This document shows positions 50,400 to 63,245 of a stretch of DNA of 64,000 bases, one piece after another; the stretch's first letter is position 1, and each line of letters starts with the position of its first letter. The DNA is taken from NCBI GenBank assembly GCA_023249305.1, contig JAHFCU010000007.1, positions 1-64,000 on the forward strand, in the 5' to 3' direction. The notes below the pieces were generated by a model that was given only the letters and a program-made list of their open reading frames with translations, was not told the DNA's origin and made no database searches. The position numbers and the translations under genes are program-made. This DNA is from Gemmatimonadota bacterium. Lineage in GTDB: Bacteria; Gemmatimonadota; Gemmatimonadetes; Gemmatimonadales; Gemmatimonadaceae.

Positions 50400-52037
50400 A
50401 TGTCCTCCGCCCCACTCGAGCGGTATTATGTGGGGTCGATGTCCAAGGTTCCTTCTCGTTCCCCTCGCCCAACTCGTCCCCCTTCACCAAGCCTCCGCAC
50501 TCCTCCTCGATCCCCCTCTGCCCTGACAACCCTCACCCGTCCGCGCCCCGCGCTCGAGGAGCTGAGTGCGCGCCTCGGCTGGGCCGTGCCCGCCATCGCC
50601 GCTCTCGTCCTCGGTATTGTCCGGCTGCCTGAGCTGACGCGAAGCCCGCTCTGGTACGACGAACTGTTCTCCGTCGGCGTCGCCGGGTTGCCGTTCGCCG
50701 ACGCGCTTCGGCGCATTATCGCCGATCACACGAACCCGCCACTCTTCTATCTCCTGCTGAAGGCGTGGATGGCGGTCGGAGGAGAGAGCGACCAGTGGGT
50801 CCGGCTGCTCCCGTGCCTGTTCTCGATGATGCTCGGGGCGGCGCTCGTCTGGCTGGCTCGCGAGGCGCGCTCGGGCGTCATCGCCGGCATGCTCGCTGTG
50901 GCGCTCGCGACGGCAAGTCCGCTGTCGGTGGACCTCGCCAACGAGGTGCGCGCCTACTCCCTGCTCGCCCTCCTCGCGTGCCTCTCGCTGGCCGCGACGC
51001 TGCGCGACCACACCCTGCGAACGCGCGATACCTTCGCGCTGATGACGCTCATCAACGTGGCACTCGTGCACACGCACTACTTCGGGTGGCTCACCATCGC
51101 AGCCGAGTGCGTCGTCGGCACCGTTTGGTGGCGCGCTGATGGGCGTCGCGTGCTACAGAGCGCCGGGTTCACGGGCCTCGCCTTTGTACCTTGGGCAACG
51201 GCCGTCGCGACGCATGCACTCGGCAATCCTGCGCCGCTTCGCAACGTCTCGTGGATCACGCCGCCCGACGCGGCGGCCCCGCTCTGGCTATTGCGCGATC
51301 TCACGGGTCGGAGTGGGAATACCGCGGCGGATCTCGCCTGGCTCGCGTTCGTCAGCGTTGCGCTGATCGCTCTCGCGTTCGCCTCGTGGCGGCACGGTGC
51401 GCAAGAGAGTGCGTCGCGCAACGCCGCGGTCTCCAAGGTAGACACGCCTACTGCGAACGCGAACTCCAGTTCGCCCGTGCAGGGGTCGCTCGCATTGCTC
51501 GTCATCGCCGGCCTTAGCGTTCCCTTGGCCGTGTGGGCGGTCTCAGTGCTTTCCGGACATTCGATCTGGGTGCAGCGCTATCTCCTCGGTGCGGCGGCGC
51601 CCGTCGCGCTGCTGACCGCGATTGCCATCGCGGCCCTGCCGCCACGTCGGTGGCACGTGGCCGCCATTGTCGGGTTGGCGTGGACGGCCGTGGCGTGCGG
51701 AGCACTCCCGCGGCGCGCGCCCACCAAGGTGGACTGGCGTCGCCTCGCACGGCGCATCGATGTGTCGGTGGGGAGTCCGCGCGAAGTGTTCGCGCTCGAA
51801 GCGTTCACCGCCGCGCCACTCCAACGCTACGCTCGGCCAGGCATGCGCGTGCGCATCGTCCCGTCGTTGGACTCGCTGCCGCGGGGCGATGCGTGGCTGG
51901 TCTATCGCCCCGAGTCGTTTGCGGCCGGCTCCCCCGCCGATGCACTGCGAGAGCTAGGCCTTACGACCGTCGCGGCGCTCTCGATGGCAACGCTCGGGCA
52001 GAAGATCGTCGCCGTGAGAATCAAGCCGGCGCGCTAA
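50400..52037 (+). CDS. GT39/PMT-like membrane glycosyltransferase
   Basis: Multi-TM protein; RLPELTRSPLWYDELFSVGVAG...HTNPPLFYLLLKAWMAVGGESDQWVRLLPCLFSMM. Start may be 50439. Confidence 0.8.
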   Translation: MSSAPLERYYVGSMSKVPSRSPRPTRPPSPSLRTPPRSPSALTTLTRPRPALEELSARLGWAVPAIAALVLGIVRLPELTRSPLWYDELFSVGVAGLPFADALRRIIADHTNPPLFYLLLKAWMAVGGESDQWVRLLPCLFSMMLGAALVWLAREARSGVIAGMLAVALATASPLSVDLANEVRAYSLLALLACLSLAATLRDHTLRTRDTFALMTLINVALVHTHYFGWLTIAAECVVGTVWWRADGRRVLQSAGFTGLAFVPWATAVATHALGNPAPLRNVSWITPPDAAAPLWLLRDLTGRSGNTAADLAWLAFVSVALIALAFASWRHGAQESASRNAAVSKVDTPTANANSSSPVQGSLALLVIAGLSVPLAVWAVSVLSGHSIWVQRYLLGAAAPVALLTAIAIAALPPRRWHVAAIVGLAWTAVACGALPRRAPTKVDWRRLARRIDVSVGSPREVFALEAFTAAPLQRYARPGMRVRIVPSLDSLPRGDAWLVYRPESFAAGSPADALRELGLTTVAALSMATLGQKIVAVRIKPAR

Positions 52038-52549
52038 GTCGGCCGGAAGCGGAGCTGCACGACGTACTTCCCGGGCACCACTTTCGCGCCCGGCAGCAGC
52101 TTCCACGCCTGCGGCGCCTTCTCCACGAGGCACGCGTTCACGGCCTTGCCGGCCTTCGATGACCAGTCGTCGGCGCCCACCCGCGCCGACCAGATCTTCC
52201 CGACGTCGAAGACGACCACCAGCGCCACGGCCCCGACCAGCTTGGGGTCCGACTTCTGGCCAAACTCCTGATAGCAGAAACGAGAGATCCCTTCTTCGCG
52301 CTGCACCGCTTCCATCAGCGCGTCGGGCGCGTCGGGGATGTTCTCGATGCGCAGACGCGGCCGGGTCGGCGGCGCGACGAACGAGTCGCTGACCGTCGGC
52401 GGCAGATTGGTCTTCACCGCACCGAGGTCCACCTTGGCTGTGTCAGGCGGCGCGGCGAAGGCCGCGGCGGCCGCAGCGGCGGACTTGGGCTTCGCGTCGC
52501 CACCGCACGCAACGAACAGCAGCAGGGCGTACATGGGGCAATGGCGCAT
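52034..52549 (-). CDS. Small lipoprotein-like protein with AgmX/TonB-C-like domain
   Basis: Lipobox-like LLLFVACGGD; REEGISRFCYQEFGQKSDPKLVGAVALVVVFDVGKIWSARV...VNACLVEKAPQAWKL resembles the domain in the adjacent AgmX-like gene. Confidence 0.65.
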   Translation of the reverse strand: MRHCPMYALLLFVACGGDAKPKSAAAAAAAFAAPPDTAKVDLGAVKTNLPPTVSDSFVAPPTRPRLRIENIPDAPDALMEAVQREEGISRFCYQEFGQKSDPKLVGAVALVVVFDVGKIWSARVGADDWSSKAGKAVNACLVEKAPQAWKLLPGAKVVPGKYVVQLRFRPT

Positions 52550-62082: not shown

Positions 62083-63245
62083 CAGAAGATCTCCGGTGGC
62101 TTCGTGCCGGGCTTCACCTGTTGCAGGCGATCGGCGGCCTTCTTGGCCGCCTCGCGCTCCTGCTCCAGCGCCTTCTCGAGCGCCGCCTGCTGGGCCTTGG
62201 CTTCGGCATCGGCGCGCGTGCGCGCCTTGGCAATCTGCGCATTGAGCTCAGCCATGCGCACGTCGCGCTGCTGCACTTCTCGACGCAGCCGGCGTGCCTC
62301 AAGCTCCAGCTCCACAGCCTCGGCGCGCTGACGCGAGCCGCGGATGATCTCGGGAATCGAGCCCGCGTAGCCGATGATGAAATTCGTCTTGGTCCAGTTG
62401 GCGAGGGGCTCGTTGTCGGGGATGCCTTTCGTTTCCTCGAGCTCCGTCATCATGAGTCCAACCGTGAGTGGGCCCGCGGTGACGACAGCGCCCGCGTTCC
62501 AGTCCCAGCCATCGTTCTCGACGATGAAAGACATCACGCTCGTTTTCGAGAGCGCAAAGGCGAGCCGCGAGCCAGCGAACAGCCCCGGCGTCAGCGTGCC
62601 ACGCCGGTTGTACACCGTGTCCATCCCGCCGTTGTTCTTGAACAGTCCCGTGCCGTAGCCGACGGTGAGGCCCAGCGACGCCCTTTCCCACGTGAACTCG
62701 CGCGTCGCGACGCCGTAGACCGACGGGCTGCCGTCAATCACGCCTTTGGCTGCACGCTGGGCCGCTGGCAGCACGTCAACCGCGCGCTTTGTGCCGGTGA
62801 CGTAGCGGTCTTGCCACGCGCTCGCACCCACATTGCGGACGCCGACGGCGAGACTCGGCAGCCACTTCACGTCTGCCTGCTGGCGATACAGCAACAGCGC
62901 CGCGTGCGCCCCGACCTGCTGGTTGTTCGTGCCGTAGATCGAGCCGCCGATGGAAAGGCGACCGAAGAGATGCGCGTCGGCGGTGAGTGTGAGATCCCAG
63001 ATGGAGCCGTTGGGGCGCGGCGTGAGCGAACCCTGGTTCAGTCCGCGGGCCGAGACGGCCGCCCAGATGTCGCCGTGCTGGGGCGAGACCCAGGCGACAG
63101 GGGCGTTGATGAGCCCCGTGCCGAACGTGAGGGTGGGTGTGTAGGCCGTGAGCGACTGCGTGGCATCCTGAGCCCGTAGCGAGGCGGCGGGGGCCAAGAG
63201 GACGGCGATCGCCAGCGCGCGACGCAGGCAGGGCGATGGACGCAT
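62082..63245 (-). CDS. Outer-membrane beta-barrel-like protein with C-terminal coiled coil (paralog 2)
   Basis: From ATG 63245 (MRPSPCLRRALAIAVLLAPAASLRAQ); YTPTLTFGTGLINAPVAWVSPQHGDIWAAVSARGLNQ parallels paralog 1. Coiled coil EAVELELEARRLRREVQQRDVRMAELNAQIAKARTRADAEAKAQQAALEKALEQEREAAKK. Confidence 0.78.
   Translation of the reverse strand: MRPSPCLRRALAIAVLLAPAASLRAQDATQSLTAYTPTLTFGTGLINAPVAWVSPQHGDIWAAVSARGLNQGSLTPRPNGSIWDLTLTADAHLFGRLSIGGSIYGTNNQQVGAHAALLLYRQQADVKWLPSLAVGVRNVGASAWQDRYVTGTKRAVDVLPAAQRAAKGVIDGSPSVYGVATREFTWERASLGLTVGYGTGLFKNNGGMDTVYNRRGTLTPGLFAGSRLAFALSKTSVMSFIVENDGWDWNAGAVVTAGPLTVGLMMTELEETKGIPDNEPLANWTKTNFIIGYAGSIPEIIRGSRQRAEAVELELEARRLRREVQQRDVRMAELNAQIAKARTRADAEAKAQQAALEKALEQEREAAKKAADRLQQVKPGTKPPEIF

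What the first reader, a model, noticed from the sequence alone, without database searches (positions are those of the whole stretch)
52034..63245. Candidate Glt/Nfs-like trans-envelope machine: TolQ + 2 TolR + 2 AgmX/TonB-C proteins + giant TPR protein + tandem OM barrels
Seen: about 11 kb of co-directional minus-strand genes, several with 4-bp overlaps. They encode one TolQ/ExbB-type channel, two TolR/ExbD proteins, an AgmX/PglI C-terminal domain protein and a smaller relative. A 1528-aa helical-repeat protein, two small secreted proteins and two paralogous OM-type proteins complete the set. Established: in Myxococcus xanthus the Agl-Glt gliding and Nfs spore-coat machines combine one TolQ and two TolR homologs (AglR/Q/S) with AgmX-type TonB-like, TPR and OM barrel proteins. 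Inference: this cluster is a distant or convergent proton-motive-force-driven machine for gliding, polysaccharide transport or surface-protein movement. The surface protein at 63426-64000 could be a substrate.
Basis: partly seen in the sequence, partly recalled or inferred. Interest (0 to 1): 0.8.

Follow-up and report, generated by a model that had tools for sequence, protein, structure and literature searches.

The report
Gliding-type motor operon in Gemmatimonadaceae bacterium
A ten-gene operon in a bacterium of the family Gemmatimonadaceae encodes a proton-driven machine across the cell envelope that is truly related to the gliding and spore-coat machines of myxobacteria, but with different outer-membrane parts and an unknown job, so a machine so far described mainly from Proteobacteria and their close kin is present in another phylum.

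Summary
Ten minus-strand genes (52034-63245) form a compact operon: two paralogous outer-membrane (OM) barrels, a coiled-coil secreted protein, a 1528-aa TPR protein, a small secreted protein, TolQ, TolR, TolR, a TonB-like AgmX/PglI-tail protein and a lipoprotein with the same tail. The order is kept in a dozen or so Gemmatimonadaceae genomes, down to about 35% identity.

TolQ falls in the AglR clade (100/100), apart from Tol/Exb proteins, and the genome has separate Tol-Pal and TonB-ExbBD loci. The TPR C-terminal half is GltD over its whole length (hhalign E 5e-79); its N-terminal half matches GltC best; the TonB tail is GltG's. A Nitrospirae contig has the order CC-C-D-E-F-R-Q-S-G.

GltD groups with the mglBA-linked 'G4' and standalone core complexes (96/95), whose function is unknown, not with gliding GltD or NfsD. 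Gliding is therefore not indicated. The OM proteins show no sequence relation to GltA, GltB or GltH. GltE and the FHA domain are missing.

Verdict: a new, rearranged, all-in-one variant of the Agl-Glt/Nfs core machine in a new phylum, cargo unknown.

The parts
62082..63245 (-). OM1: signal peptide, predicted 12-strand OM beta-barrel with C-terminal helical tail (387 aa)
   Evidence: (AF2 pLDDT 75); paralog of OM2; conserved first in operon
60979..62082 (-). OM2: paralogous OM barrel protein with coiled-coil C-terminal tail (367 aa)
60252..60923 (-). CC: secreted protein, about 80-residue coiled-coil helix plus transthyretin-like beta-sandwich (223 aa; GTG start likely)
   Evidence: AF2 pLDDT 85, Foldseek; hhalign to CC proteins of mglBA-linked myxobacterial clusters P 92.6, E 4.6e-7
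58555..60238 (-). N-terminal part of the TPR protein, GltC-like (separate gene in relatives)
   Evidence: best profile match GltC P 98.4, E 5e-15 versus GltE 7e-7 and GltD 1e-6; separate ORF in L028, L029, L032, L189, L190, L193
55652..58588 (-). C-terminal part of the TPR protein, GltD homolog (whole ORF 55652-60238, 1528 aa)
   Evidence: hhalign to GltD family P 100, E 4.6e-79, 894 columns
55246..55632 (-). sm: small secreted protein with conserved core EIRxQxPxPxVxTVRPR, in the slot of GltF
   Evidence: no significant similarity to GltF, positional match only
54623..55249 (-). TolQ-type channel subunit, AglR clade (208 aa)
   Evidence: Pfam PF01618; tree 100/100 with AglR type, apart from Tol/Exb; motifs
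54056..54601 (-). TolR1, AglQ counterpart (start 54601 or 54544), transmembrane Asp kept
   Evidence: PF02472; profile hits first TolR of myxobacterial AglRQS-type clusters
53529..54059 (-). TolR2, AglS counterpart, transmembrane Asp kept
   Evidence: PF02472; profile hits second TolR of AglRQS-type clusters
52663..53532 (-). GltG-like TonB protein: TM helix, Pro-rich linker, AgmX/PglI C-terminal domain; no FHA domain (289 aa)
   Evidence: NF033768 59 bits over cut-off 40; hhalign GltG P 99.7, E 4e-26
52034..52549 (-). Lp: lipoprotein (lipobox-like LLFVAC) carrying a second, diverged GltG-type C-terminal domain (166-171 aa)
   Evidence: hhalign to GltG tail P 93.5, E 2e-7

Best explanation
This is a homologous, all-in-one member of the Agl-Glt/Nfs family of trans-envelope machines, of the 'core complex / G4' type, in a Gemmatimonadaceae genome. 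TolQ, TolR1 and TolR2 form a proton-driven motor like AglRQS (homology shown; 5:2 stoichiometry inferred). The motor drives the GltG-like TonB protein, which reaches through the periplasm with its AgmX/PglI tail (domain shown, action inferred). The GltC-GltD fusion and the coiled-coil/beta-sandwich protein form the periplasmic scaffold (homology shown for GltD, supported for GltC and CC). Two paralogous 12-strand barrels with helical tails are the OM output, and the lipoprotein with a second GltG-type tail is a second docking point (inferred). Most likely job: pmf-driven movement or loading of something at the outer surface, such as a polysaccharide or surface protein, rather than gliding proper (inferred).
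For: TolQ: profile scores 130-136 bits against the two myxobacterial TolQ-TolR-TolR clusters (lengths of one fit AglRQS) versus at most 57 bits for every Tol/Exb paralog; tree splits AglR-type from Tol/Exb at 100/100, with the genome's other two MotA/ExbB proteins on the Tol/Exb side. GltD P 100, E 4.6e-79 over 894 columns; GltG tail E 4e-26; GltC best E 5e-15; CC E 5e-7. Same order in a Nitrospirae genome (CC-C-D-E-F-TolQ-TolR-TolR-G) and partly in Nannocystis, Enhygromyxa and others. Gene order kept across Gemmatimonadaceae. GltD tree places the group with G4/core clusters, 96/95. Both TolRs keep the membrane Asp. Separate Tol-Pal and TonB-ExbB-ExbD-ExbD loci in the genome.
Against: OM1/OM2 have no sequence relation to GltA/B/H, so the OM end is not shown to be the same machine. 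GltE absent; sm not shown to be GltF. FHA domain of GltG absent. The Gemmatimonad GltD branch is long (2.2 changes per column). No experiment on function; cargo unknown. One same-genus MAG has the OM pair without a detectable GltD, so the pair may act elsewhere too, or that MAG is incomplete.
Confidence: 0.72

Rival explanations
1. A gliding motility machine proper: the motor moves along the cell and the OM barrels with a surface adhesin form focal adhesions, as Agl-Glt does in Myxococcus.
For: Same motor and transducer families; MglA homologs present in the genome; a large lipoprotein lies next to OM1.
Against: GltD groups with G4/core clusters, not with gliding GltD; GltA/B/H, GltE, GltI and GltK not found in the operon; MglA is equally present in relatives without the operon; mutation of MXAN_1922 (G4) leaves gliding intact in M. 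xanthus (PMC3169522).
Confidence: 0.12
2. A polysaccharide-handling machine like Agl-Nfs: it captures an exported polymer at the OM and moves it along or wraps it round the cell (one form of the best explanation, with the cargo named).
For: Nfs precedent (PMC3858216). The closest myxobacterial clusters (G4 type) lie between mglBA and an OPX export gene in Archangium, which looks like the place of wzaB (MXAN_1915) in M. xanthus.
Against: OPX genes in Gemmatimonadaceae lie on other contigs or about 176 kb away; no polysaccharide export locus beside the operon.
Confidence: 0.35
3. A TonB-like energised gate: motor and TonB-like proteins open OM1/OM2 as import or export channels, without lateral movement.
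For: TonB-like protein plus channel-forming barrels; best fold matches are FapF, a peptide exporter, and other 12-strand channels.
Against: Fold match is weak (TM about 0.35-0.49); no plug domain seen in the model; scaffold proteins GltC/GltD are not part of TonB systems.
Confidence: 0.15
4. An ordinary Tol-Pal or TonB-ExbBD system with unrelated neighbours.
For: Motor subunits belong to the MotA/TolQ/ExbB and ExbD/TolR superfamilies.
Against: TolQ is outside Tol/Exb at 100/100; Tol-Pal and TonB-ExbBD loci are elsewhere in the genome; order conserved across genera.
Confidence: 0.01

Closest known systems
Agl-Glt 'core complex' (aglRQS, gltC, D, E, G; Luciano 2011, PMC3169522) and the M. xanthus G4/M2 clusters
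   Same: Motor of one TolQ and two TolRs of the AglR clade; GltD; GltG tail; GltC-like TPR; single operon as in non-deltaproteobacteria; CC protein shared with mglBA-linked clusters
   Different: New phylum; GltC and GltD fused; no GltE; GltG without FHA; two unrelated OM barrels and a lipoprotein with a second GltG tail added
Nfs spore-coat machine (NfsA-H) of Myxococcus
   Same: Operon order OM-OM-C-D-(E)-F-G in an Nfs-like cluster; trans-envelope transducer driven by AglRQS
   Different: Motor genes inside the operon; OM proteins not GltA/B/H-like by sequence; GltD lineage distinct from NfsD
Agl-Glt gliding machine of Myxococcus
   Same: Motor, GltD, GltG tail, two TonB-tail proteins
   Different: Lacks GltA/B/H by sequence, GltE, GltI, GltK in the operon; nearest relatives not needed for gliding
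Tol-Pal and TonB-ExbBD
   Same: Superfamily of the motor; TonB-like transducer
   Different: Different clade; genome has its own Tol-Pal and TonB-ExbBD

Membership tests
Agl-Glt/Nfs core complex | TolQ of the AglR clade | tested here: met
   Tree 100/100, 24 AglR-type rows against 14 Tol/Exb rows
Agl-Glt/Nfs core complex | Two TolR proteins next to TolQ, each with the membrane Asp | tested here: met
   R1 and R2 profiles hit first and second TolR of AglRQS-type clusters
Agl-Glt/Nfs core complex | GltD | tested here: met
   hhalign E 4.6e-79 over 894 columns; reverse search E 1e-113 to 2e-42
Agl-Glt/Nfs core complex | GltG: TM helix, TonB-type C-terminal domain | tested here: met
   NF033768 over cut-off; hhalign E 4e-26
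Agl-Glt/Nfs core complex | GltG: cytoplasmic FHA domain | tested here: not met
   No FHA in the 289-aa protein against 47 bits in Hyalangium GltG; also not detected in the Archangium G4-type and Nitrospirae GltG, so not universal in the family
Agl-Glt/Nfs core complex | GltC TPR protein | tested here: met
   Best match GltC E 5e-15, next GltE 7e-7; generic TPR similarity contributes, so moderate strength
Agl-Glt/Nfs core complex | GltE TPR lipoprotein | tested here: not met
   No gene in the slot; GltE profile finds none in the operons. An unlinked copy was not excluded
Glt gliding / Nfs (expanded) machine | GltA/GltB-type OM barrels | tested here: not met
   hhalign P under 4; GltA/B profiles find nothing; OM1 profile finds no relative in 15 myxobacterial and related genomes. 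Fold-level relation not tested pairwise
Glt gliding / Nfs (expanded) machine | GltF small secreted protein | tested here: inconclusive
   Right slot, no significant similarity
Glt gliding / Nfs (expanded) machine | GltH (CglE-type barrel) | tested here: not met
   Profile finds none in the operons
Glt gliding machine | Required for gliding; motor complex moves in the cell | not testable with these tools
   Needs a cultured strain
Tol-Pal / TonB-ExbBD | TolQ/ExbB of the Tol/Exb clade | tested here: not met

The most novel reading that the evidence does not exclude
Gemmatimonadaceae carry a pmf-driven surface-transport or gliding machine in which the AglRQS-GltCDG core has been given a new OM output, a pair of coiled-coil-tailed 12-strand barrels unrelated to GltA/B, working with the adjacent 940-aa surface lipoprotein as cargo or adhesin.
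Probability: 0.2. Interest if true: 0.8.

Novelty: new variant of a known kind. Interest (0 to 1): 0.55.

Why it matters
The Agl-Glt core was described from Delta-, Gamma- and one Betaproteobacterium and Fibrobacteres, with core function unknown (PMC3169522). This operon carries it to Gemmatimonadota (and a Nitrospirae contig carries it too) in one ten-gene unit that holds motor, scaffold and OM parts together. Such a compact set is a convenient object for complex prediction and for asking what the core does when it does not drive gliding. It also suggests that the OM end of the machine is exchangeable while motor, GltD and GltG tail stay. No paper in the held library links AglQ with Gemmatimonadota; most subscription papers could not be checked.

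Tried and rejected
Ordinary Tol-Pal/TonB: rejected by the tree and by the separate loci. Convergent assembly: rejected by full-length GltD homology plus conserved order. OM1/OM2 as GltA/GltB: no support by profile-profile or genome search. sm as GltF: one hit (E 0.0017) vanished when the signal-peptide region was trimmed, so not claimed. MglA as partner: present with and without the operon, uninformative. Link to OPX polysaccharide export in Gemmatimonadaceae: not co-located. Foldseek of CC gave only generic transthyretin/Ig-like sandwiches. Search for a PDB relative of the TonB-like protein gave nothing significant. The GltD survey lists 135 of 300 genomes at E<0.001, but all but 16 are weak, generic TPR hits.
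Full report
Observation. The window lies on a 68.9-kb contig of a MAG (2.5 Mb, 78.6% complete); named close hits are Gemmatimonadaceae. Ten minus-strand ORFs from 63245 down to 52034 form a compact operon: OM1, OM2, CC, a 1528-aa TPR protein, sm, TolQ, TolR1, TolR2, a TonB-like protein and a lipoprotein. 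TolQ and both TolRs pass Pfam cut-offs. The TonB-like protein passes the AgmX/PglI C-terminal domain cut-off and weakly matches GltG.

Synteny. OM2 is found in 11 of 60 relatives, one of them a marginal partial match. Where the contigs are long enough, the same genes follow in the same order, at identities from about 80-90% within the genus to about 35% for the OM proteins in other genera. In three genomes of one genus (G026, G135, G138) the lipoprotein is not adjacent. In several relatives the 1528-aa protein is two genes, about 750 and 1000 aa, so the window form is a fusion, or the others are splits. A survey of 300 Gemmatimonadota genomes with the C-terminal TPR profile gives 16 strong matches, all in the window's own family and patchy within it; the weaker matches are generic TPR proteins.

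Reference machines. To obtain real Glt/Nfs loci, an M. xanthus MglA sequence, recalled and then corrected against PDB chain 6hjh_A, was used as bait for named myxobacterial genomes. Their GltG and GltD clusters were then fetched. An Nfs-like cluster reads B-A-C-D-E-F-G-H in Myxococcus and Hyalangium (A and B are labels I gave by position). A TolQ-TolR-TolR cluster of Myxococcus sp. CA023 matches AglR, AglQ and AglS in length (245, 162 and about 194 aa as listed in PMC3169522); its identification as aglRQS rests on those lengths and the gene order.

Motor. The Gemmatimonad TolQ profile scores 130-136 bits on the two myxobacterial TolQ-TolR-TolR clusters and at most 57 bits on all Tol/Exb paralogs. 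In the tree, 24 AglR-type sequences, including the window's, separate from 14 Tol/Exb sequences at 100/100; the genome's other two MotA/ExbB proteins fall with Tol/Exb. One of those lies in a Tol-Pal-like locus (TolQ, TolR, TolA, TolB, Pal, YbgF, read by order and length), the other in a TonB-ExbB-ExbD-ExbD locus. TolR1 and TolR2 correspond to the first and second TolR of AglRQS-type clusters, and both keep the membrane aspartate.

Transducer. Profile-profile comparison of family alignments, with all other pairs as background: TPR C-terminal half to GltD, P 100, E 4.6e-79, 894 columns; TonB-like protein to GltG tail, P 99.7, E 4e-26; lipoprotein to GltG tail, P 93.5, E 2e-7; TPR N-terminal half best to GltC, E 5e-15 (GltE 7e-7, GltD 1e-6); CC to the CC protein of mglBA-linked clusters, P 92.6, E 4.6e-7. 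The FHA domain of GltG is absent here; it was also not detected in the Archangium G4-type and Nitrospirae GltG. GltE is absent from the operon. sm sits in the GltF slot without significant similarity.

Outer membrane. OM1 is predicted as a 12-strand barrel followed by a long helical tail, residues 297-377 (pLDDT 75). The best PDB matches are FapF and other 12-strand channels, at low TM-score. Neither OM family resembles GltA, GltB or GltH in sequence, and no relative was found in 15 myxobacterial and related genomes. The OM pair is thus either a very remote relative or a replacement, in the same two gene slots.

Place in the family. The GltD tree, after leaving out long branches, groups the Gemmatimonad proteins with the mglBA-linked clusters of Myxococcus, Corallococcus and Archangium and with the clusters of Nannocystis, Enhygromyxa and one RIFOXYA12 deltaproteobacterium, 96/95; the GltD of the gliding-type and Nfs-type clusters lie on the other side. 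The Gemmatimonad branch is long, so this is good but not final. In M. xanthus, G4 (MXAN_1922), G5 and M2 have no known function, and their disruption does not affect gliding (PMC3169522). That the mglBA-linked cluster here equals G4 is my reading: mglBA being next to MXAN_1922 is from memory.

Gene order. A Nitrospirae genome (GWC2_57_13) reads CC-GltC-GltD-GltE-small-TolQ-TolR-TolR-GltG, the window's order without the OM pair. This is the strongest single sign that the operon is an inherited unit and not a chance gathering.

Function. Shown: homology of motor, GltD and GltG tail, and conserved order. Supported: GltC and CC. Inferred: pmf-driven motion of the TonB-like protein, scaffold role, OM output. 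A lead on cargo: in Archangium the G4-type cluster is followed by a CRP-like gene, two further genes and an OPX polysaccharide-export gene, which looks like the place of wzaB/MXAN_1915 in M. xanthus. In Gemmatimonadaceae no OPX gene lies nearby. The adjacent 940-aa lipoprotein accompanies the operon in only two of the same-genus genomes. I therefore rate surface transport of a polymer or protein as most likely and gliding as unlikely but not excluded.

Novelty. A search of the held library found no paper joining AglQ with Gemmatimonadota, and the 2011 survey reported the core only from Delta-, Gamma-, one Betaproteobacterium and Fibrobacteres. It is a new variant of a known kind.

Noticed in passing
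L188 (Archangium): 5622-19880; L185 and L126 (Myxococcus sp. CA023): The mglBA genes are followed directly by a Glt-like cluster (CC-GltC-GltD-GltE-GltF-GltG), then a CRP-like gene, two further genes and an OPX polysaccharide-export gene: the G4-type cluster sits between mglBA and a polysaccharide exporter, a lead for its unknown function.
   Followed up: partly
window 63426-64000, continuing to about 66248 of the contig (L034:1427-4534): A 940-aa lipoprotein with no Pfam or NCBIfam match lies about 180 bp upstream of OM1 on the same strand; relatives of it precede the operon in G001 and G004 only.
   Followed up: partly
L027:8219-10770 (G007, same genus): The OM1-OM2 pair occurs alone, about 48% identical to the window's, with no detectable GltD in that 81% complete genome; the pair may have a life outside the machine, or the rest is missing from the assembly.
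   Followed up: partly
L184 (Nitrospirae bacterium GWC2_57_13): 4235-14421: An all-in-one core cluster CC-GltC-GltD-GltE-small-TolQ-TolR-TolR-GltG in a Nitrospirae genome, a phylum not in the 2011 survey's list.
   Followed up: partly
L035:3133-5597 (own genome, contig C56): A TonB-ExbB-ExbD-ExbD locus, also with two ExbD genes but of the Tol/Exb clade.
   Followed up: no
window 50400-52037 (+) and 48298-50051 (-): A PMT_2-type membrane glycosyltransferase converges on the operon's end (4-bp overlap with the last gene), followed by a histidine kinase and LuxR-type regulator; this block is conserved in the genus.
   Followed up: no
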